Below are positions 1,146 to 10,124 of a stretch of DNA of 64,000 nucleotides, in pieces. A program made the translations under genes and the position numbers. Under the pieces are notes generated by a model. That model was not told the origin of the DNA. It ran no database searches and worked only from the letters and a program-made list of their open reading frames with translations. The DNA comes from Rhizobium sp. P38BS-XIX (lineage in GTDB: Bacteria > Pseudomonadota > Alphaproteobacteria > Rhizobiales > Rhizobiaceae): contig NZ_JABAIJ010000002.1 in assembly GCF_012641435.1 (NCBI RefSeq), forward strand, positions 496,001 to 560,000, in the 5' to 3' direction. The stretch's first letter is position 1. Each line of letters opens with the position of its first letter.

Positions 1146-2176
1146 TCAGCCTAGCTCGTAGACTGCAGCATTGTCCTGGATCTCACGCAGTCCTTTATAG
1201 GATGCGTGTCGCAGATTGCCGTCGTCGGTCCAGCCACGGAATTCGATCTCGGCGATCAGGGTCGGCTGCGCGAAGACGTAATTCTTGCCCTTGAGCGGCA
1301 CGACCGGCGTCCTCGTCTTCAGCTTGTCGAGCGTCTTCTTCAGGTAGTCTGCGTCCTTTTCCTTAAAGCCCGTGCCTACTTCGCCGACATAGATCCAGTC
1401 GTGGCCACGCCGGGCGGCAAGAAGCAGGCTGCCGATCCCTCCTCGGGCGTGGCTGACTGTTCGTAGCCGACGATCATGAAGCTTTCGCTCTGAATGCATT
1501 TGATCTTCAGCCAGTCGCCGGTCCTGCCCGAGCGGTACGGGCGTTCGCGGTGCTTGGCGATAATGCCTTCCAGTCCAAGCGAGCGGGCGTTCTCCAGGAG
1601 CTCGGCGCCGTCACCCTGCACCTCCTCGGAAAGCTGTATCGCGCCAACGGCTCCGTCGAGCAGGTCGGTCAGGAGATGGCGGCGGACCGACAGCTCGGTC
1701 TTCGTCAGATCGTGCCCGTCGAGGTATAAGAGGTCGAAGGCGAAGAGGACGGCTTCCTCAGAAGCACGCTTGCCGCCGCGTCCGCCGAGCGAGCGCTGAA
1801 GCGCTCCGAAATCGGATCGACCCTCGCTGTTCAGCACAACAGCTTCGCCGTCCAGAATGGCGGTTCCGATCCCCAGCTCTCTGGCGGCTGCTGCAATCGC
1901 GGGAAACCGATGTGTCCAATCATGGCCGCCGCGCGTGATGATCCGAACACCCTTTGGCTCGATGTGGATCGCCAAACGGTACCCGTCCCACTTGATCTCG
2001 AAGACCCAATCCGGTCCGACCGGTGGGGCTGCCTTCAGCAAAGCCAGGCATGGCTCGACCCGGTCTGGCATTGGATCGAAAGGAAGATTCGGCTGCGCTG
2101 GATCGCGCTTCCGGCGCGGCTGCGATTTGGCCGAAAGACTGTCGTCCTGCAGGAGGGGCTTCGCCGATCTCTTCAT
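1146..2176 (-). pseudogene. ATP-dependent DNA ligase (LigD ligase-domain type), frameshifted
   Basis: Reading leftward from the ATG at 2174-2176, the first 245 or so residues form an ATP-dependent ligase adenylation domain: the nucleophile lysine is K62 in FEIKWDGYR, followed by LDGEAVVL, LFAFDLLYLDG, EGIIAKHRERPY and WLKIKC. The OB-fold part (GSLLLAARRG, VGEVGTGFKEKDADYL) continues in another frame and ends at 1146. The shift lies near 1440, at a G-rich run, and looks like one missing base. Together the pieces make about 340 residues, a ligase without polymerase or phosphoesterase domains. Its start overlaps the Ku stop (ATGA), so it was in an operon with Ku. A sequencing error is possible. 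Confidence 0.8.
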
Positions 2177-2811
2177 TTGCCGGTCCGGGTTTCAGCGGCA
2201 ACCGACTTCTTCAAGGCATCCATGATGTTGATGACGTTGTTCGGGGCGGGCGCCGAGGCCGGTGCTTTCGCCTTGGCCTTCGCCGGCTTCTTCAGCGCCT
2301 TCTTCTTGGTGGCGATGATGTCGAGCAGCCGATCCTGCACCGGATCGATCACCATCTTCGGGTTCCAGTGCTGCGTCTGCTTCTTGATCAGTTGCTGTAC
2401 CAGGGGCATCATCTCGCTGTCCGCCGTCTCGTCGTCGTCGATGCCTGCAAAATAGGTGCCTTCATCGCGGACTTCATCCCCATATCGTAGCGTCCAGAGG
2501 ACGATACCCTTGCCACGTGGCTCCAACATGACGGCGCGTTCCCGGCGCGAGATCACCAGCCGCGAAATACCTACCATGTCCTGCGCTTCCATCGCGTCGC
2601 GGATGACGGAGAAGGCTTCCTGCCCGACCGGATCGTTGGGCGACACGTAATAGGGAGTATCGAGCCAGATCCATTCAACGCTGCCACGAGGGGTGAAGGT
2701 CGAGATGTCGATCGTCTTCGTGCTGTCGAGCGCGACGTTCTCCAGCTCCTCGTCTTCCAGCATGACGTAATCATTCTCGCCACGCTGATACCCGCCGGAG
2801 TAGATTTCCAT
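2173..2811 (-). pseudogene. ku: Ku end-joining protein, missing its N-terminal part
   Basis: A 212-residue Ku-family protein. Ku forms a ring dimer on DNA ends and recruits LigD. The central family blocks are clear: ENDYVMLEDEELENVAL, RLVISRRERAVMLEPRGKG, LWTLRYGDEVR, and a Lys/Ala/Pro-rich tail followed by NVINIMDALKKS. Bacterial Ku proteins usually begin with about 65 further residues (a WKG...LY start leading into the KGY-GENDYV strand). Here the match begins at about GGYQRGENDYV. The missing part is not found upstream, where the frame runs into the start of the GajA gene. The gene was probably cut when the neighbouring island arrived. The remnant could still be translated from the ATG at 2809-2811 but should not form a normal ring. 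Confidence 0.75.
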
Positions 2812-2867
2812 GATGGACTTCTCAAAAGCGCTTTGTAAACCTATCGGAATGAGCCATGGGGGAAGGC

Positions 2868-4805
2868 ATGTATCTGCAACGGGTTAAGGTTGAGAATTTC
2901 CGTATTTTCGAGAACCTTGAAGTTGATCTAAACAAGACTTTGAATATCATTGTCGGAGAGAATAATTCCGGTAAAACCGCGCTTGTCGATGCGATCCGAT
3001 ACACCTTGTCATCAAGGACGGGTGAATGGTTGAGGATCCTCGAGAGTGACTTCCGCCGCGGTACAACACGCTTCTCAGTTCGGCTCAAGTTCTGCGATCT
3101 TTCCACTCAGCAAGCGGCAGCCTTCCTTGAGCATTTGACATTTGAAGAGGTCGGCGGCCTGCGCAAGCCGTCTCTGTACGTTACTCTTGCGGCCGAACTG
3201 ACGGAGCAGGTCGTCAGGGGAACACGGCAAATTCGCTCGGACATCCGCTCAGGCCCGTTGGGTGAAGGACCGTCCATAGAACGTGAGGCGCGCGAGTACC
3301 TTTCTGCGACATATCTTAAACCGCTGCGTGACGCTGAGGCGGAGCTGAGCGGTGGTCGTGGCTCTCGCCTCGCCCAGGTCTTAAATGCAGCCGAGAGCTT
3401 TCGGAACGTTGTCCACGTCGACAACCTCCTCGACGCAGTCATCCAAGCGAACGTCACAATTCTCGGAAACCCTGGCATCGCGGACAGCCTCGCCCGCATC
3501 AAGACACAGCTCAAAGGCCTGGATTTCGCCAACACACCGTTGAGCCCGATCATCGAAATCGTCGGTGGAATTGCTCTAGACGCGCTGGGGCCAGTCGAGC
3601 GTAAGCAGATGCTGCGGGCCGTCCTCGAGAGGCTCCAACTGCTGATCGATGAGAACGAGCGAATTCAAGGGCTGGGCTATAGCAATCTTCTCTTCATGGC
3701 GACAGAGCTTCTGCTGCTTGAGGAAGAGAAGGACGACTTTCCGATGCTCCTCATCGAGGAGCCGGAAGCACACCTGCACCCCCAGTTGCAGATGAAGTTT
3801 CTCAAGGCGATCCGGGAAGGCTTTGGCGGCAACGGTAAACCAGCGCTGCAGAGCATCCTCACGACCCACAGTCCGAACCTGGCATCGAAGTCCGACCTCG
3901 ATAGCTTGATCATCATGTCTGGAGGCAGAGCCTTTCCCTTGCGAAAGGGGCTGACGGAACTGGACGACGAGGACTATGTCTTCCTTGAGAAATTTCTCGA
4001 CGTGACCAAGGCGAACCTCTTTTTTGCCAAAGGGGTCATCATTGTTGAGGGCGACGGTGAAAACATCCTGCTGCCAACGATAGCGAAACTGCTCGGCCGG
4101 CCGCTGGACGACTACGGCATTTCGATCGTGAACGTGGGAAGCACTGCCTTCGCCCGCTACGCGAATATCTTCAAGCGTTTTGGAATGGCCGATGACCAAC
4201 ACCGTGACCGCTGGCTCCCCATTCCCGTAGTTTGCATCCGGGATATGGATCTCCGACCAGAAGGGGCCAAAATCTCCGAGGAAAATCCTTTCGGATTCAT
4301 AGAATACAAGCCGAGAGGCGCAGTGTACTGGGAATCCCATTACGATGGAAATCCGGAGGCGAGGGCAGCTTGGGTGGCAGGCCGACTTGGCCCCCAAGGA
4401 CAGAACGTCCTCGTCGAGATCTCCGATCATTGGACATTCGAGTACTCGCTTTTGATGTGTGGCCTGGCCGAGGAAGTCCACGAGGCCGCGCCTGGAGCCG
4501 ACGTACCATTTGCCGATTTGCCGGCAGATCCAACCGAGCGGGCGCTGACCGTTTACGCCCGCATTTCGGTGGACAAATCGAAGACCGAAACGGCCTATAG
4601 ACTCGGCCCCATCCTCGAGCAGCGTTTTACCCCAGAACTTGTCGCGGCCACTGCAGGTGAGACAGAGCAAGAGGCAGAGGCGCGTCAGCAGCAGAACCTC
4701 GAACTGATAGAGCAAAAGCACCAGGAGCTGCGAGCAGCACTGCCCTCCTATCTGGTCCGGGCACTGGATTATGTCACCGGCGTCCATCAACCGGCTGGAG
4801 GCTGA
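2868..4805 (+). CDS. gajA: OLD-family ATPase/TOPRIM nuclease, GajA-like (Gabija)
   Basis: An OLD-family protein with an N-terminal ABC-type ATPase and a C-terminal TOPRIM nuclease, the architecture of class 2 OLD proteins and of GajA. Numbering from the ATG at 2856: Walker A GENNSGKT at 34-41, Walker B with LLIEEPEAHLHPQ near 298-310, H-loop TTHSP at 336-340, TOPRIM glutamate in IIVEGDGE at 395-402, and the DxD pair in IRDMD near 461-465. In known Gabija systems GajA is a nucleotide-inhibited, sequence-guided nickase acting on phage DNA. I prefer the start at 2868 (MYLQRVKVENFRIF), preceded by GGGGG; the ATG at 2856 is the alternative. The UvrD-like partner starts six bases after the stop. 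It begins right beside the broken end of Ku. Confidence 0.88.
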   Translation: MYLQRVKVENFRIFENLEVDLNKTLNIIVGENNSGKTALVDAIRYTLSSRTGEWLRILESDFRRGTTRFSVRLKFCDLSTQQAAAFLEHLTFEEVGGLRKPSLYVTLAAELTEQVVRGTRQIRSDIRSGPLGEGPSIEREAREYLSATYLKPLRDAEAELSGGRGSRLAQVLNAAESFRNVVHVDNLLDAVIQANVTILGNPGIADSLARIKTQLKGLDFANTPLSPIIEIVGGIALDALGPVERKQMLRAVLERLQLLIDENERIQGLGYSNLLFMATELLLLEEEKDDFPMLLIEEPEAHLHPQLQMKFLKAIREGFGGNGKPALQSILTTHSPNLASKSDLDSLIIMSGGRAFPLRKGLTELDDEDYVFLEKFLDVTKANLFFAKGVIIVEGDGENILLPTIAKLLGRPLDDYGISIVNVGSTAFARYANIFKRFGMADDQHRDRWLPIPVVCIRDMDLRPEGAKISEENPFGFIEYKPRGAVYWESHYDGNPEARAAWVAGRLGPQGQNVLVEISDHWTFEYSLLMCGLAEEVHEAAPGADVPFADLPADPTERALTVYARISVDKSKTETAYRLGPILEQRFTPELVAATAGETEQEAEARQQQNLELIEQKHQELRAALPSYLVRALDYVTGVHQPAGG

Positions 4806-4811
4806 TCCGAG

Positions 4812-6719
4812 ATGATTGAACTAGTCGACAACGATATCGATGAATTGCTTCTCGTTCTAAATCAGAACCGAGCATCCCCTCTCGTCCTCGACCCCTCTCG
4901 TCGGCAAGCGCTTTGCGGGAACCATGATGTCCAGGCCTGTCCTGGAAGCGGCAAGACGACTTTGGTTGGCCTCAAGCTCTTGTGCTTCATCAGAAAGTGG
5001 ACCGCTCCAAGACGTGGCATTTGTGTTTTGACCCACACCAATATCGCCAGAGACGAGATCCTAAAATGCCTGTCTGGCCATCCGTCCGGGTTTGCGCTTC
5101 GAAGCTATCCGCATTTCATTGGCACAATACAGGAATTCGTCAACACCTACATCGCGCTGCCAGCGCTCCGCTCCAAAGGCATGACCGTCACCCAGATTGA
5201 TGATGATCATTGTGTGGACCGACTTGAACAAATGGCGCTGCCCGGCACAAAAACCTATTTGGCCAACAGGCACGCCTCGATTTCGGAGCTTCGATACCGA
5301 TGGGAACATAATAGCCTCATCCTCAAAACGCCGGCATTTCAGATGCCCTCACAATCCGCATCTTATACCAACCTTCTGGCGATAAAGGCGCGACTTCAGG
5401 CTGAAGGTTCTTTCTTTTATTCGGAGATGTATGCCTACGCGCAGGAATCCTTGTTTCACAATCCCCAACTCGTAGACGCCCTCCGGTACCGTTTTCCCGT
5501 TGTCCTGATTGACGAAATGCAGGATGTGCAGGGGTTTCAAGACGAGCTAGTCAGTGCAATATTCGACCACGCAGACGTACATTATCAGAGGTTTGGAGAC
5601 CCTGATCAATCGATCTTCGACGGAGTTGGCGGTGAACTACCCAACATCTCTTACAACAGCGCCGATATGCAGCCGATTGTGGAAAGCCATAGGTACTGCC
5701 CGGCTATTGCAGTGCAGCTCGGCGGGCTAAGCAGCCGAAAGCTTGTGCTCACCACCAGCCGCGAACCGGCGCCTGGAGATCCGAGCAATGCGATAATTCT
5801 TTTTAGCAATGACACGCGGGCGCAGGTTCTCGACTGCTTTGCTGGAATTGTGCAAACGCTTCCGGCGTCGCGGCGCCTCGTCGTCAAGGCGGTTGGTGGG
5901 GTTGCCGAGAACAGCGGGGATGCTGCCGCCCCCCTTAACATCAAAAGCTATTGGCCTGACTTTCAGCGTAACCTTCAGCCTCAAAATCCAAAGCCTGACA
6001 CGCTTTGCCAAGCTGTAGGGCAAGCCATCTCGCTTCGCGCCGGCGGCCAAGGCCTTTCACTTATTCTGGACGCGATCGTGAGCGCCTTCCGGCTGGCAGG
6101 AATCCGCTTCATAAGTCGGGTTGGGGTCGAGAAACCACCATCACGTTCGGGACTAGCCGACCATCTCCGATCAAAGCAGGTCTATGGCACGCTACGTCAG
6201 ATGATCGCCGAATGGGTTGTTGGAGACGACCCCTCAGAGGAGCAATGGAATGCTCGGGTTGAAGCGCTCCGTGCGCTTCTCGAGCTTCCTGGCCAGAATG
6301 CCGGATTGAATAGCTTTCTAGCATACGGACCTGCGGCGGCGCCCGTAGAGGCTGAGATCGACGTCCCCATAAATACCTATATTTCGGAAGCTGATGTTAA
6401 AATCGAACTGGCAACCATTCATAGCGTGAAGGGGGAGACACATGATGCAACCCTGCTTCTCGAAACAAAATACCGCACACTATTCGACTTGAAGGAGATG
6501 ATTCCGCACATCATGGACCATGCACTGCCGGCGCCGGTTTTCGATCCCGCCCATCAAACAACACATGTCTCGATTCGAGCGTCCTTCATGAAGAAGGCCT
6601 ATGTCGCCGCAAGCCGACCACGGCATGTCCTTGCTCTTGCAATGGGCAGGGACCGCATCACTCCGGCCCAACGTCAAAGCCTAGTTGATGCAGGCTGGAA
6701 CGTCATCGACCTCGGGTAG
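4812..6719 (+). CDS. gajB: UvrD-like superfamily 1 helicase, GajB-like (Gabija)
   Basis: A 635-residue SF1 helicase. Motif I is QACPGSGKTT at residues 41-50, motif II is VVLIDEMQDVQGF near 227-239, motif III is GDPDQSIF near 262-269. The motif V region is IHSVKGETHD near 536-545, and the final VAASRPRHVL corresponds to motif VI with its arginine. It starts six bases after the GajA-like gene; a GGAGG in that gene's last codons can serve as ribosome site. The adjacency of OLD nuclease and UvrD helicase defines the Gabija type, where GajB is thought to sense DNA ends and stimulate GajA. Longer than many GajB proteins, with about 130 extra residues between motif III and motif V. Codon use is less GC-rich than in groEL, in keeping with transfer. 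Confidence 0.88.
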   Translation: MIELVDNDIDELLLVLNQNRASPLVLDPSRRQALCGNHDVQACPGSGKTTLVGLKLLCFIRKWTAPRRGICVLTHTNIARDEILKCLSGHPSGFALRSYPHFIGTIQEFVNTYIALPALRSKGMTVTQIDDDHCVDRLEQMALPGTKTYLANRHASISELRYRWEHNSLILKTPAFQMPSQSASYTNLLAIKARLQAEGSFFYSEMYAYAQESLFHNPQLVDALRYRFPVVLIDEMQDVQGFQDELVSAIFDHADVHYQRFGDPDQSIFDGVGGELPNISYNSADMQPIVESHRYCPAIAVQLGGLSSRKLVLTTSREPAPGDPSNAIILFSNDTRAQVLDCFAGIVQTLPASRRLVVKAVGGVAENSGDAAAPLNIKSYWPDFQRNLQPQNPKPDTLCQAVGQAISLRAGGQGLSLILDAIVSAFRLAGIRFISRVGVEKPPSRSGLADHLRSKQVYGTLRQMIAEWVVGDDPSEEQWNARVEALRALLELPGQNAGLNSFLAYGPAAAPVEAEIDVPINTYISEADVKIELATIHSVKGETHDATLLLETKYRTLFDLKEMIPHIMDHALPAPVFDPAHQTTHVSIRASFMKKAYVAASRPRHVLALAMGRDRITPAQRQSLVDAGWNVIDLG

Positions 6720-6757: not shown

Positions 6758-7255
6758 TTATAGATGGGTTTTCGCCCAAATCAGCGCACCTAGGGCGGCT
6801 GCTTTCGCCTCTTCTTCAGAGGGATACCATTTACGTCCGGCCTGCCGCTGCGCTGTTCCACGCCTCGAAACGGCTATGCGGTATCCTTCCGATCCGCGAT
6901 AAACCGTCAAATTGAAACCTTCGGAATTGAGGTAGGAATTTCCGGCATGGGAAATCCGCCACTTCCTTCCACGCCAGGTTTTCCTTCGCGCAGCGAGCCG
7001 TCTCAGATCCTTTTCTCGAGCTCGCGGCCGCGCGTAGTCTTCCTCCATATGTTCTGCGCATACGCATCCTACTGCCAATGTTTCCGGATAGTCTGGGTGC
7101 TCCATGTAGTGAACGTAGCGAATATCAACGCTCTCGCACATTTCGCAGACCTGGGAGGGCTCCTCCAGGTCATCAACGCCAACGCAGCTCCAACCCCTAT
7201 GTGGTACATGCGGCTCGGACCATTTGCCACGCTGGGTATGCACGTCAGTCGACAT
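6758..7255 (-). CDS. Cys-rich protein of unknown function beside the Gabija pair
   Basis: A 165-residue protein I do not recognise as a characterised family. Residues 20-70 carry a likely metal site: C24, the pair CEMC at 37-40, and C64, C66 and H69 in GCVCAEH. Residues 74-100 are strongly basic (RPRAREKDLRRLAARRK). The C-terminal half (NSYLNSEGFNLTVYRG, GYRIAVSRR, KWYPSEEEAKAAAL) looks like a small beta-rich fold ending in a helix. A zinc-bound nucleic-acid binding protein is a reasonable guess, not more. It converges on gajB (38 bases apart) and is the last of three leftward genes, 94 bases below the PD-(D/E)XK-like gene. Confidence 0.65.
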   Translation of the reverse strand: MSTDVHTQRGKWSEPHVPHRGWSCVGVDDLEEPSQVCEMCESVDIRYVHYMEHPDYPETLAVGCVCAEHMEEDYARPRAREKDLRRLAARRKTWRGRKWRISHAGNSYLNSEGFNLTVYRGSEGYRIAVSRRGTAQRQAGRKWYPSEEEAKAAALGALIWAKTHL

Positions 7256-7349
7256 AGCTTCCCTCGGTTATGAGCATCGGATGGTATACCATCGATCAGA
7301 GAATATTAAGTTCCGCGCCGACGGTTACACAATCGCCCATTTTACCGAG

Positions 7350-8432
7350 TCACATGTCAATTGACTCAACGAGCTCTTCTTCGCCGAACTTGGGATTCGG
7401 CTGAAGAATGAATTGCCAGAGCGGCAGGGTCTCGTTCTTGAAGCCCTCGGGAATCCGGAGTGTGAATATTTCCGGGTCGTGCCGGATATCGAGGGCGACG
7501 ACCCCTGTGTCCTCCACTGTCAGTTCTCGATACGCGCTGCTGACCATTTGGCTCAGTCCGCCGATCGTCTCGAACCCCTGATCCTCATGCACCTCCTCGG
7601 GTTCGAATACGAACTGCAGAGCGATTACCTTTCTACCCTCGAATAAAGCCTTCGGCTCACCACACGACCATCGGCCGTATCGCATCAAATAAAACGCGAT
7701 CTCCCGAGCATCATCTCCTACGATCTCGGTGTCCCCACACTCGAACCTTATCGACTTGATCGTGAAAAGCACCTCGGATTTATCGTTCGGCTCCATCGCG
7801 AGGTCTGGTGTCGTCCGAAATTCAATAGACAGTCTCGGAAGCGTCGCAATGGTGCGATCTCCGAGAATAGCCATCTCATTGAGGGCCATTGCCCGAGCAA
7901 AAGACACTGTAAAATGCTTGCCAATCCTTTTGAACGCACTCTTGGGGAGCAATGCCCAGGAGTTCGCATTGGAAAAATAGATCGCGATTTTAAGTGGAAG
8001 ACCGTTAAGCTCCGCATATTGCTCAAGCCCGGCCATCGTTTTCGCAGGCAGCGTGAACTCCTTGTCGAACGACTTAATGTAGAAGTTCTTCACCTCAACA
8101 AATAGTGCTGACCCATCATTGAGCACGATCTTGTAGTCAGGTGCGATCAGATTACCTGCAGCCACGAACATATCACCGGCGTCTTCCTGTTTGATGAACT
8201 GACAGCGGCCCAGCGCGCCGGCAACGTGAGCGAAGAGAGCCTCGGCCCGCTTTCCATGAAGCAGGAGTGGGTTCGTTTGCGACGCCTGAAGAGAGCCTTT
8301 CACAGTGTCCAGGAAGCTCTCCATGTCACCGTCGACATTGAGCTTGTATCCGCGGTCACGGCCGAGCGCGGTAAAAAGGGCAATGGCGTCGAATTTCTCT
8401 GGGTCTCTCTTCACTCGTTTCATAGCTTTCAC
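7350..8432 (-). CDS. PD-(D/E)XK nuclease-like protein
   Basis: A 360-residue protein. Residues 60-120 fit the PD-(D/E)XK nuclease core: a helix with E64 (KRAEALFAHV), then APDYKIVLNDGSALFVEVKNF, giving D99, E113 and K115 with the spacing expected of the metal-binding site. A helix with a conserved-looking glutamine (GLEQYAELNGLP) and a following beta strand (KIAIYF) complete the pattern. The C-terminal 190 residues are acidic and beta-rich and are not recognised. The start is a GTG at 8430-8432; an internal ATG three codons later is the alternative. The gene starts 19 bases after the GIY-YIG-like gene, so the two are probably one operon. Family membership rests on motif reading only. Confidence 0.7.
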   Translation of the reverse strand: MKAMKRVKRDPEKFDAIALFTALGRDRGYKLNVDGDMESFLDTVKGSLQASQTNPLLLHGKRAEALFAHVAGALGRCQFIKQEDAGDMFVAAGNLIAPDYKIVLNDGSALFVEVKNFYIKSFDKEFTLPAKTMAGLEQYAELNGLPLKIAIYFSNANSWALLPKSAFKRIGKHFTVSFARAMALNEMAILGDRTIATLPRLSIEFRTTPDLAMEPNDKSEVLFTIKSIRFECGDTEIVGDDAREIAFYLMRYGRWSCGEPKALFEGRKVIALQFVFEPEEVHEDQGFETIGGLSQMVSSAYRELTVEDTGVVALDIRHDPEIFTLRIPEGFKNETLPLWQFILQPNPKFGEEELVESIDM

Positions 8433-8451
8433 TCACTGAGGGGCCAAACGT

Positions 8452-8958
8452 TCATTCGGGATCCGGGTTATCGTAGTCGCGCTCTGAAGCCCCGCATTCC
8501 AGGCATATTTCACCGCCAAAATTTTCGCTATGAGTCCATCCACCTGCCCATCCGCAGTTTGGGCAAAAGTCGTAGAGATCGACGTCGCCCCACAACCAAG
8601 GACTAGCATATTCCGGTACGGCGTCCCGGTCATATGACACAATCTCGAAAGCGTCTTGTCCGACCGAAATATAGGCGTGCGTGGAATGTCGCTTAAGACC
8701 CTCGATCACGTCTTCAGCGCTTAGAAAGAACCATTCGCGCTCATCAGATTTATCGGAAAATCGACCATGCAGGTCTTTCTCGATCCGTTTATCCTCCTTT
8801 ATCGAAGAAGTTCGGATTTCTCCCATCAATGCGAACGTGCGGCGATTGCCAGTTTGCAGATCTGCAATCCGTCGCTTCAGGGCTTTCGACCTTCCAATCT
8901 TCACATACAGCCGACCCGCCAAGCTGTTATCGAGTTCAGTCAAAAAATAGACAGCCAT
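8452..8958 (-). CDS. GIY-YIG (T5orf172/MUG113-like) domain with C-terminal zinc ribbon
   Basis: A 168-residue protein. Residues 1-90 match the T5orf172/MUG113 branch of the GIY-YIG nuclease superfamily: strand VYFLTE, then LYVKIGRS with the central KIG in place of YIG, LKRRIADLQTGN, E60 and H64 in RIEKDLHGRF, and REWFFLS. Residues 130-156 form a likely zinc ribbon with CPNC at 132-135 and CLEC at 152-155. The domain is found in phage proteins and near restriction and defence genes; whether this copy cuts DNA is unknown. It is the first gene of the leftward set, with the PD-(D/E)XK-like gene 19 bases behind. The start codon at 8956-8958 is preceded by GGGGAGG at a good distance. Confidence 0.75.
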   Translation of the reverse strand: MAVYFLTELDNSLAGRLYVKIGRSKALKRRIADLQTGNRRTFALMGEIRTSSIKEDKRIEKDLHGRFSDKSDEREWFFLSAEDVIEGLKRHSTHAYISVGQDAFEIVSYDRDAVPEYASPWLWGDVDLYDFCPNCGWAGGWTHSENFGGEICLECGASERDYDNPDPE

Positions 8959-8984: not shown

Positions 8985-10124
8985 TCATATCATTCCCCAT
9001 GCCCGAAACCTCCCCCTCCCCGTCATCTCGCGCAAGCCAAGTTCCAAAACGATCCGCCGCGCCGCCTGCGGCGTGACGTCAAGCGTTTTAGCGATCATGC
9101 CCGCCGACACGAGTGGTTTTGCCATCACCAGCTCGACCAGCTCCGGGAGCTTTGACGATGTCCGGCGCCCTTCCAGCTTTCGTTCCATCAGCGTACGCGC
9201 GAGTGTCAGCCGGTCATGTTCTTTGATGCCGATCTCGGCGGCAGCCAGCAAACCGTGGGCAATGGCGAGCAGCCGCGTCTCCCGGTCTCGATGCCGGCGC
9301 CGATCGACGGGAATGGTTTTCAGGCCGAGATTGATGGCAGCGAGATGGGCGCCGGCGGTGATGCCAGCCTGGCGCAAAATCGAGGCTGCAAAGAGCCGGC
9401 CAAGCCAGGGTGCGTGCTGAAGAACGGACAGCTCGTTCCAGGCGTCGAGGGCGACGATCGCCTGCAACATCACTGGCAGATGTTCGGCTTGGCGCAGCAC
9501 AGCGCGCCACTCGTCGAGCCGCGTGTCCTCATCCCAATCGAGATCATAGACGAGAGGGTCTCGTTCGCCGATATCAGCGCGCCCGGGCCGCTTAGCCTGT
9601 TCGATCGCCGCCTCCGATCGGGCAAGCAGCGCATCGATCGCGGCATAGTCGACACCGGGCAGATCTTTGGCGTCATCACCATCCTCTCTCTCCCCTTCCG
9701 CATCCATCGGGGCCGCGGGTCGGTTGACGCCGACCGTTACCCCTTCCCCTACGCCGACTGGAGTGATGTCCGATGTTTGTCGCAAAGATCGCATACCCTC
9801 CGCGGACAGAGCCCAATCCGGCGACTGCGCGGCGATACGTCGGCGGGTGCGCAGCACGTCGCGGGCGATGGTGAGCTCGTGGGTCGGGGTGCGGATGTCG
9901 CTGGTGGAGTCGTGGAGGACGAGGTCTTCGAGGTGAACGAGTTCGCCGTCGATCCACAGCGAGGCACAGGCATCGGCAAAATGGCTGCGTTCGATCCACC
10001 CCTGCCCGACCGGCGAACGGGCGATGCGCTCGTCGAGACGGGTCAGAGCGAAACCGGCGTCGAAAGCCGGTCGCATCAAGGCTGTCATGCTGATTTTCGC
10101 GAGATCGTAACCCATTGAAATCAT
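8985..10124 (-). CDS. RHE_PE00001 family protein (DUF1612, winged-helix C-terminus)
   Basis: A 379-residue protein of the RHE_PE00001/DUF1612 type known mainly from rhizobial plasmids. The N-terminal region ([37 protein letters not shown]) resembles the front part of Fic-associated proteins. The middle holds an acidic, low-complexity linker at about residues 130-170, followed by the DUF1612 core ([34 protein letters not shown]). The last 60 residues are a winged helix ([26 protein letters not shown]). A DNA-binding regulatory role is plausible but not shown. It lies 27 bases upstream of the GIY-YIG-like gene on the same strand, so it may be cotranscribed with the nuclease-like set. The family's plasmid habit supports an accessory replicon. 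Confidence 0.85.

What the first reader, a model, noticed from the sequence alone, without database searches (positions are those of the whole stretch)
6758..8958. Leftward set of GIY-YIG, PD-(D/E)XK and Cys-rich proteins: candidate undescribed defence or mobile-element system
Seen: three same-strand genes. The first is T5orf172/MUG113-like with a zinc ribbon. The second, 19 bases behind, has a PD-(D/E)XK motif (E64, D99, E113, K115). The third has two Cys clusters. Two different nuclease folds in one tight unit beside a Gabija pair is the guilt-by-association pattern by which new defence systems were found. I know no named system of this composition.
Basis: partly seen in the sequence, partly recalled or inferred. 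Interest (0 to 1): 0.75.

Follow-up and report, generated by a model that had tools for sequence, protein, structure and literature searches.

The report
Three defence genes beside Gabija
On a large bacterial plasmid, next to a known anti-virus system called Gabija, sit two probable DNA-cutting enzymes and a small zinc-site protein; relatives show that these genes usually travel separately among many defence systems, so they look like interchangeable defence parts and not one new three-part machine, and the small protein is the most intriguing of them.

Summary
Observation confirmed. ORF1 (8958-8452) is a T5orf172/MUG113 GIY-YIG protein with a zinc ribbon. ORF2 (8423-7350) is a PD-(D/E)XK protein whose predicted core matches archaeal Holliday-junction resolvase Hjc. 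ORF3 (7255-6758) is a Cys/His-rich 165-aa protein. ORF2 and ORF3 matched no family in four libraries, save one insignificant PHROG row for ORF2.

With the upstream gene RHE_PE00001 they form a block facing Gabija, spaced alike in the window and three plasmids, under purifying selection.

The 'one new system' reading fails the finder's own test. ORF1 and ORF2 adjoin only where ORF2 is about 80% or more identical (5 loci); ten other ORF2 locus types lack ORF1. Of plasmid records, 43 hold ORF2, 10 ORF1, 44 ORF3, and the same 3 hold all. In 14 of 14 plasmid records viewed (of 44) and 6 of 8 genome loci analysed, ORF3 lies by Gabija, CBASS, BREX/WYL, PDC-S06 or an XRE-ImmA/CapH-CapP-type controller.

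Best reading: a composite plasmid defence island of independently mobile parts, ORF2 the probable DNA-cutting effector, ORF3 an undescribed, widely shared accessory of defence operons. Function is inferred; nothing here shows activity.

The parts
8452..8958 (-). ORF1, 168 aa: GIY-YIG (T5orf172/MUG113) domain plus C-terminal zinc ribbon
   Evidence: PF10544 43.9 bits over cut-off 20, PF13455 41.4 over 22.3; active-site-like columns and four Cys kept 7 of 7
8689..8952 (-). GIY-YIG/T5orf172 domain of ORF1 (residues 3-90)
   Evidence: Pfam match range
8494..8565 (-). zinc-ribbon-like Cys pairs of ORF1 (C132/C135, C152/C155)
   Evidence: 7 of 7 rows; A2L_zn_ribbon only below cut-off, E=0.063
7350..8423 (-). 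ORF2, 357 aa (ATG start): PD-(D/E)XK nuclease-like protein with about 170-180 further C-terminal residues
   Evidence: motif columns; Foldseek top hits Hjc, E=1.8e-5, prob 1.00; VIA Z 9.6, rmsd 2.8, 115 aligned
7893..8255 (-). PD-(D/E)XK core of ORF2 (about residues 57-177; E61, D96, E110, K112)
6758..7255 (-). ORF3, 165 aa: Cys/His-rich N-terminal half plus C-terminal four-strand-and-helix domain; undescribed defence-associated family
   Evidence: AF2 mean pLDDT 93.8; 44 plasmid records, 17 IMG/VR loci, 16 of 397 genomes of the order, own included
7058..7186 (-). Cys/His cluster of ORF3 (C24, C37, C40, H49, H53, C64, C66)
8985..10124 (-). RHE_PE00001 family gene (DUF1612 + HTH_13), head gene of the block
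   Evidence: NF040876 536 bits; PF07756, PF11972; 26-27 bases before ORF1 in four copies
2856..4805 (+). GajA of Gabija
   Evidence: PADLOC PDLC00099 E=7e-212
4812..6719 (+). GajB of Gabija, convergent with ORF3 (38 bases apart)
   Evidence: PADLOC PDLC00147 E=2.9e-226; gap

Best explanation
This is a composite anti-invader island on a probable repABC megaplasmid, built from separately mobile parts, not one three-gene machine. ORF2 is most likely the effector: a PD-(D/E)XK DNA endonuclease with an Hjc-like core, which probably cuts structured or otherwise non-self DNA (branched replication intermediates or modified DNA), because none of the eight window proteins scanned beside it is a methyltransferase that could protect self DNA. 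ORF1 is a second, zinc-ribbon-guided GIY-YIG nuclease that in Rhizobiaceae has been placed upstream of ORF2 in one short operon behind the HTH gene RHE_PE00001. ORF3 is an independent accessory, a zinc-site protein whose small C-terminal domain weakly resembles single-strand DNA binders, which attaches to Gabija, CBASS, BREX and Cap-type controllers and here sits between ORF2 and Gabija. Shown: sequences, motifs, predicted folds, conservation, neighbourhoods. Inferred: operon, nuclease activity, target, defence phenotype, cooperation, the DNA-binding role of ORF3.
For: Nuclease folds. Purifying selection and like spacing in four copies. Ten ORF2 locus types without ORF1: next to PDC-S06 (E=6.9e-156, L014), PDC-S15/FRG (E=7.3e-99, L020 phage) and an Aga/Avs2-like SMEK protein (L017), and within a few genes of an Mrr-like enzyme (L015) or an MmeI-type enzyme (L010): 5 of 10. 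ORF1 relatives follow Lit-like (L024, L125), TrlF-operon (L022, L023, L124) or RNase-T2-type (L021) genes. ORF3: 14 of 14 plasmid records viewed and 6 of 8 genome loci analysed lie by defence genes or Cap-type controllers. 39 ORF3-neighbour proteins match 170 PADLOC models at 1e-10; 39 control proteins, from six of the same seven genomes and one other, match 3. No methyltransferase among 8 window proteins. Contig C22 is 607,721 bp with two repC-type genes.
Against: No activity was measured. The ORF2 model is weak: mean pLDDT 55, blocks with the motif residues 96-112 at 53-68, residues 121-180 at 69-82, after 277 under 50. In five of the 10 ORF2-only locus types no defence gene was recognised, though few of their neighbours were scanned. 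Two of 8 genome loci of ORF3 (L069, L130) have none recognised, and of 17 IMG/VR loci only L035 showed a controller pair by BLAST. An island setting does not prove a defence role. PADLOC models are redundant, so 170 models are far fewer proteins, and the controls also matched three. In the window ORF3 has no CapH/CapP, WYL or XRE-ImmA neighbour. GajB of one of the four copies (L011) is split by a stop in frame, and one ORF2 copy (L013) has R for the motif K, so parts of the block may be dispensable.
Confidence: 0.6

Rival explanations
1. One new defence system: RHE_PE00001-ORF1-ORF2 (with or without ORF3) works as a unit in which one protein senses and two nucleases cut.
For: Gaps of 26-27, 28-31 and 93-95 bases kept in the window and three plasmids; both nucleases under purifying selection; three distant ORF2s (L016, L018, L127) share a different upstream partner that abuts or overlaps the ORF2 start, which suggests that ORF2 needs some partner.
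Against: ORF1 and ORF2 adjacent in 5 loci only, all with ORF2 about 80% or more identical; ten ORF2 locus types lack ORF1; ORF1 and ORF3 found apart.
Confidence: 0.2
2. Selfish or mobility nucleases: ORF1 is a homing-type endonuclease and ORF2 a recombination nuclease carried by plasmids and a transposon; defence neighbours are bystanders.
For: T5orf172 is common among phage homing endonucleases, most with Zn-finger DNA-binding domains (PMC10448857, passages seen); an ORF2 relative (L128) lies near TniQ, TniB and Mu-type transposase genes; Hjc resolvases act on recombination junctions (recalled).
Against: ORF1 sits in a closely spaced gene block that is kept by descent, and Pfam shows no homing-type DNA-binding domain in it (CapR model not tested); ORF2 copies lie by diverse defence genes on plasmids and a temperate phage.
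Confidence: 0.15
3. Plasmid competition or upkeep: the block protects the plasmid against rival plasmids or entry, not against phages.
For: 35 of 43 ORF2 plasmid records are predicted conjugative (32 are Providencia, Proteus or Escherichia records of 37-38% identity to the query, so hardly independent); a T5orf172 nuclease directed at a satellite's replication origin is known (Gp88/Odn, PMC8263062, passages seen).
Against: ORF2 also lies in temperate coliphage genomes and on a 6.9 Mb contig (L127).
Confidence: 0.15
4. ORF1-3 are accessories of this Gabija (regulators or helpers).
For: Kept together with Gabija in the window and three plasmids; ORF3 follows GajA-GajB on the same strand in two other genomes (L066 by 7 bases, L067) and lies beside GajA, divergent, in Aeromonas.
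Against: ORF1 and ORF2 relatives elsewhere were not seen with Gabija; ORF3 is as often with CBASS or controllers; GajB of L011 is split by a stop.
Confidence: 0.15

Closest known systems
T5orf172 / MUG113 GIY-YIG nucleases (PF10544, PF13455), including Gp88 (Odn) of phage ICP1
   Same: Same nuclease domain; Gp88 is a T5orf172 nuclease that acts against a mobile element (PMC8263062, passages seen).
   Different: ORF1 has a C-terminal zinc ribbon, no RepA_N domain by Pfam, and lies in a plasmid gene block with a second nuclease.
Archaeal Holliday-junction resolvase Hjc (PD-(D/E)XK)
   Same: Best fold match of the ORF2 core (Foldseek E=1.8e-5; VIA Z 9.6, rmsd 2.8, 115 aligned).
   Different: ORF2 is 357 aa against 113-130 for the chains listed, has a further C-terminal part, and matched no Pfam model at E up to 0.1.
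SPARDA complexes (9qcc, 9vx6, 9jsz and others)
   Same: A chain of these aligns to ORF2 residues 4-192 (Z 4.2-5.8, 113-122 residues); a defence effector nuclease (recalled).
   Different: No Argonaute-type Pfam hit among the 8 window proteins scanned.
PADLOC candidate PDC-S57
   Same: ORF1 GIY-YIG part matches (E=9.8e-7).
   Different: Only the nuclease domain aligns (profile positions 18-94 of 212).
Cap controllers (CapH+CapP, CapW, CapK+CapS) of immune operons
   Same: ORF3 relatives are neighbours of XRE-ImmA/CapH-CapP- or WYL-type genes.
   Different: ORF3 itself has no Pfam domain and the window copy has no such neighbour.

Membership tests
GIY-YIG, T5orf172 subfamily (ORF1) | Pfam domain over curated cut-off | tested here: met
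   43.9 bits against 20
GIY-YIG, T5orf172 subfamily (ORF1) | active-site-like residues (Y4, K20-x-G22, R29, E60) kept; their catalytic role is recalled | tested here: met
   7 of 7 rows; position 21 is I in 5 and V in 2
GIY-YIG, T5orf172 subfamily (ORF1) | DNA cleavage | not testable with these tools
   needs purified protein
PD-(D/E)XK nucleases (ORF2) | E...D...ExK motif in relatives | tested here: met
   15, 15, 15 and 14 of 15 rows
PD-(D/E)XK nucleases (ORF2) | core fold | tested here: met
   first 15 Foldseek rows all Hjc-type resolvases; Z 9.6; model confidence low to moderate
Hjc resolvases (ORF2) | match to a family profile | tested here: not met
   no Pfam family at E up to 0.1
Hjc resolvases (ORF2) | Holliday-junction cleavage | not testable with these tools
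   needs enzyme assay
Homing endonucleases (ORF1) | known homing-type DNA-binding domain beside T5orf172 (CapR, DUF723, DUF4397) | tested here: inconclusive
   no such Pfam hit; CapR model not tested
Single three-gene defence system | the trio kept together in distant genomes | tested here: not met
   together only in close copies
Gabija accessory | ORF1-3 found with Gabija in independent settings | tested here: inconclusive
   seen for ORF3 only (L027, L066, L067)
Cap controller modules (ORF3) | controller gene beside ORF3 in the window | tested here: not met
   tblastn of four proteins (WYL, XRE-ImmA, CapH- and CapP-like): no hit in the window or the 18 kb stretch L131
PC4/PUR-like single-strand DNA binders (ORF3 C-terminal domain) | fold | tested here: inconclusive
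   Foldseek best E=0.03; VIA Z 4.4 for 4agh, best Z 5.8 for chains of other kinds

The most novel reading that the evidence does not exclude
ORF3 founds an undescribed, widely shared defence accessory family: a small zinc-site protein with a ssDNA-binder-like domain that is plugged into Gabija, CBASS, BREX and others and works with ssDNA/DNA-damage-sensing controllers (CapH-CapP, XRE-ImmA, WYL), so one small part would sense or relay damage for many unrelated defence systems. ORF2 would be an undescribed nuclease effector with swappable upstream partners.
Probability: 0.3. Interest if true: 0.75.

Novelty: new variant of a known kind. Interest (0 to 1): 0.5.

Why it matters
ORF2 and ORF3 represent two protein families that matched no model (ORF2 one insignificant PHROG row) in the four libraries scanned, and relatives of both recur among anti-phage genes on plasmids, in genomes and, for ORF2, in a temperate coliphage. 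If ORF3 is a shared accessory of unrelated defence systems, it would link damage sensing to defence operons, and a deletion series in CBASS- and Gabija-bearing loci could test that. ORF2 is a simple one- or two-gene candidate for phage and plasmid challenge.

Tried and rejected
Rejected: the trio as one conserved system. Rejected: the GTG start of ORF2. Not adopted: ORF3 as a Gabija part only, since CBASS and controller neighbours are as frequent.

Led nowhere: genome-contig scan with ORF2 gave 2 loci. Viral-contig scans with A3 and A5 gave no relative. Sequence searches of solved structures gave nothing significant (for A1, two of three chance-level rows, 4qbn and 2eo0, were PD-(D/E)XK nucleases). 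ORF3 fold: no Foldseek match under E=0.001 in PDB or BFVD; its N-terminal half was barely tested, as the C-terminal domain filled the list. Promoter and terminator scan below shuffle mean. No tRNA in the window. Paper searches; no listing named this composition; the search for PhiR11/ECOR13 showed no paper on that phage among the 8 of 34 listed. Papers: PMC13373217 abstract, outline and one section seen; PMC8263062, PMC10448857, PMC2686095 and PMC12839542 passages seen; PMC9122601 a term search without occurrence; the rest listing only.

Rows dropped before counts: five ORF3 relatives of a longer type (L072-L075, L077) and three broken or partial ones (L071, L076, L078) were left out of '6 of 8'; L070 is itself broken by a stop yet was counted. 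L130 was judged by BLAST against reference proteins only. The ORF2 locus L129 (= L005) was left out of the ten, since its upstream side is cut by the contig end; the remote relatives L006 and L007 too. 14 of 44 ORF3 plasmid records were viewed, picked by hand; they make seven arrangements (three window-type, four CBASS, two WYL-WGR, two near-identical XRE-ImmA, and three single ones). Control proteins: 39 of the 90 listed. IMG/VR neighbours were not scanned with PADLOC; the Pfam comparison was 100 neighbour proteins against 39 controls, so not to scale. Gene calls in unannotated loci come from a simple ORF picker and can be wrong.

On the second look at this report the two plasmid searches were repeated with all rows shown and ORF1 absence was rechecked by tblastn; 'eleven' ORF2-only types became ten and 'nine' ORF3 arrangements seven. 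One search was this report sent with four fields in the wrong form; it was not taken.
Full report
What was checked. The window lies on contig C22 (607,721 bp) of a 7.06 Mb genome; C22 carries two repC-type genes at 73 and 88 kb, so it is probably a repABC megaplasmid. The three minus-strand ORFs are as described. ORF1 (8958-8452) carries T5orf172/MUG113 over the curated cut-offs and two Cys pairs kept in 7 of 7 rows. ORF2 is best read from the ATG at 8423 (357 aa); the motif E61-D96-E110-x-K112 is kept in 15, 15, 15 and 14 of 15 rows. ORF3 (7255-6758) has seven Cys/His positions each kept in 12 to 14 of 14 rows. ORF2 and ORF3 match no Pfam, NCBIfam or PADLOC family at E up to 0.1; ORF2 has one insignificant PHROG row (E=0.051), ORF3 none. 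Each has a single hit in its own genome.

The block. RHE_PE00001 (DUF1612 + HTH) lies 26 bases before ORF1. In the window and three plasmids (Agrobacterium pusense CP135082, Rhizobium bangladeshense CP071621, Rhizobium sp. 007 CP064191) the order RHE_PE00001 - ORF1 - ORF2 - ORF3 facing GajB-GajA is kept, with gaps of 26-27, 28-31, 93-95 and 38-53 bases. In CP135082 GajB is split by a stop in frame. A short Shinella contig (L009) keeps ORF1 and most of ORF2 with remnants of RHE_PE00001 and GajA. Nei-Gojobori dN/dS against these copies: ORF1 0.15-0.16 (two copies; saturated in two), ORF2 0.05-0.13 (four copies, the lowest at high dS), ORF3 0.05-0.15 (three), GajA 0.05-0.07 (two), RHE_PE00001 0.16-0.21 (two). 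The genes are under purifying selection and are more than chance ORFs.

Folds. AF2 of ORF2 with only 4 rows gives mean pLDDT 55: 53-68 in the blocks with D96-K112, 69-82 over residues 121-180, under 50 after 277. Even so the first 15 Foldseek rows in PDB are archaeal Hjc-type resolvases (best E=1.8e-5, probability 1.00, TM 0.68 by target length), and VIA-align gives Z 9.6, rmsd 2.8, 115 residues aligned for 2wiw_A, with RecU, tRNA-splicing endonucleases, SPARDA chains and restriction enzymes below. ORF2 is therefore best read as a PD-(D/E)XK protein with an Hjc-like core. AF2 of ORF3 with 14 rows is confident (mean pLDDT 93.8). Its C-terminal part is four strands and a helix; the best Foldseek rows are single-strand DNA binders (MoSub1) and PUR-alpha, but none is significant (E=0.03 or worse), and VIA Z values up to 5.8 cover unrelated proteins. 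Single-strand DNA binding by ORF3 is a lead, not a result.

Do the three belong together? ORF2: 6 of 397 genomes of the order, own included; 43 plasmid records, from Rhizobiaceae and enterobacteria to Nocardia and Streptomyces; 2 phage records; 2 IMG/VR loci. ORF1 lies beside it only in five close loci. Ten other locus types lack ORF1: L010, L014, L015, L016, L017, L018, L019, L020 (with L079, L080), L127, L128. Their neighbours include PDC-S06, PDC-S15/FRG with a HEPN-like gene below its cut-off, an Aga/Avs2-like protein, an Mrr-like enzyme and, some 6 kb away, an MmeI-type enzyme: 5 of 10; in the others few neighbours were scanned, though the records annotate an antirestriction protein (L018) and phage-abortive-infection proteins (L019). 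Three (L016, L018, L127) share a different upstream partner of up to about 260 aa that abuts or overlaps the ORF2 start. ORF1: 10 plasmid records and four strong hits, own included, among 26 of 397 genomes (the other 22 are weak and cover mainly the nuclease domain). Outside the five loci it trails TrlF-TauD-type operons (L022, L023, L124), lies behind Lit-family genes (L024 with one gene between and itself annotated in two pieces; L125), or overlaps an RNase-T2-type gene (L021); in L126 no neighbour was recognised. Three A. vitis records were not viewed. No viral contigs locus was found for ORF1. All rows shown, the lists of ORF1, ORF2 and ORF3 plasmid records share the same three records and no others.

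ORF3 is the surprise. 44 plasmid records; 16 of 397 genomes of the order and 7 of 385 of the class, own included in both, several of these weak or partial; 17 IMG/VR loci, some near-identical. Of the 44 plasmid records 14 were viewed: Gabija in 4 (three window-type, plus Aeromonas L027 divergent from GajA); patatin/CD-NTase/ThiF CBASS with ORF3 trailing in 4 (L025, L091, L093, L094, each with an HTH + ImmA/IrrE pair at the other end); WYL-WGR-ORF3 in 2 (L028 beside BREX, L095 beside SbcD); an XRE/ImmA-type gene upstream in 4 (L026 with one gene between, L029, L092, L096): 14 of 14, in seven arrangements. Genome loci: L066 and L067 are GajA-GajB-ORF3 on one strand (PADLOC GajA E=2e-208 and 5.8e-242); L065 has PDC-S06 two genes upstream; L068 RmrA and ZacC; L064 a CapH-CapP-like pair (71% and 58% identical to those of L025); L070 a WYL gene 88% identical to that of L028, with ORF3 itself broken; L069 and L130 have none recognised: 6 of 8. 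39 ORF3-neighbour proteins match 170 PADLOC models at 1e-10; 39 control proteins, from six of the same seven genomes and one other, match 3. Models overlap, so this is a contrast, not a rate. In IMG/VR only L035 showed an HTH + ImmA-like pair directly before ORF3 by BLAST; Pfam over 100 neighbours (39 genome, 61 IMG/VR) gave HTH_3 in 4, Peptidase_M78 in 2, AAA_25 in 4 and two restriction-enzyme families once each, so the phage-side role is open and a purely defensive reading is not shown. CapH+CapP, CapW and CapK+CapS control immune operons in response to DNA damage (PMC13373217, abstract and one section seen); I saw no ORF3-like companion in that section, nor the word WGR in PMC12839542 or PMC9122601.

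How it most likely works. ORF2 cuts incoming or replicating foreign DNA; with no methyltransferase among the scanned neighbours, self is probably spared by structure- or modification-dependence (inferred). ORF1 adds a second nuclease whose zinc ribbon may set the target (inferred); a T5orf172 precedent acts against mobile DNA (Gp88/Odn, PMC8263062, passages seen). RHE_PE00001, of a family with a winged-helix C-terminus and remote Fic-like N-terminus (PMC2686095, passages seen), is the likely local regulator (inferred). ORF3 is an add-on shared among defence systems (association shown, role inferred).

Against my reading. All function is inferred; the ORF2 model is weak; islands carry bystanders; five of 10 ORF2-only types show no recognised defence neighbour; the plasmid records viewed were picked by hand; and in the window itself ORF3 has no controller neighbour.

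Verdict. What remains is a mosaic plasmid defence island with two undescribed protein families, of which ORF3 is the more interesting.

Noticed in passing
window 8985-10124 (-): RHE_PE00001 family gene (DUF1612/HTH_13) heads the ORF1-ORF2-ORF3 block; relatives also lie in the stretches L018, L024 and L029.
   Followed up: partly
window 1376-2811 (-): Ku and ATP-dependent ligase genes of non-homologous end joining lie directly beside Gabija.
   Followed up: no
L057-L061 (genome loci of the ORF3 search): Longer open frames (227-286 aa) carry an ORF3-like domain behind an extra N-terminal part with a CxxC..CH motif that looks HNH-like by eye; Pfam gave only one hit below cut-off for the one tested, L057.
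   Followed up: partly
L128 1085-7502: An ORF2 relative, broken in frame, sits by a ScpB-like gene and TniQ, TniB and Mu-type transposase genes, so it may be cargo of a Tn7/Tn5053-like element.
   Followed up: partly
L020, L079, L080: Temperate coliphage PhiR11_1 and two IMG/VR contigs carry FRG-domain (PDC-S15), ORF2 and HEPN-like genes side by side; in PhiR11_1 they lie near the tail-fibre genes, on the other strand.
   Followed up: partly
L013 12286-12744 (-): A relative of the upstream partner of the L016-type ORF2 lies beside GajA in Rhizobium sp. 007, although its ORF2 has ORF1 as neighbour.
   Followed up: no
L021 6952-8519: The GIY-YIG relative of ORF1 overlaps the end of an RNase-T2-family gene, near MqsRA and CBASS-like genes on a Sulfitobacter plasmid.
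   Followed up: no
L013 6512-7585: In this ORF2 copy, 85% identical to the window's, the motif Lys is Arg, so it may be inactive or altered.
   Followed up: no
plasmids NZ_CP109597 and NZ_CP109170: ORF2 relatives at 29-30% identity occur on Nocardia and Streptomyces plasmids, so the family reaches Actinomycetota.
   Followed up: no
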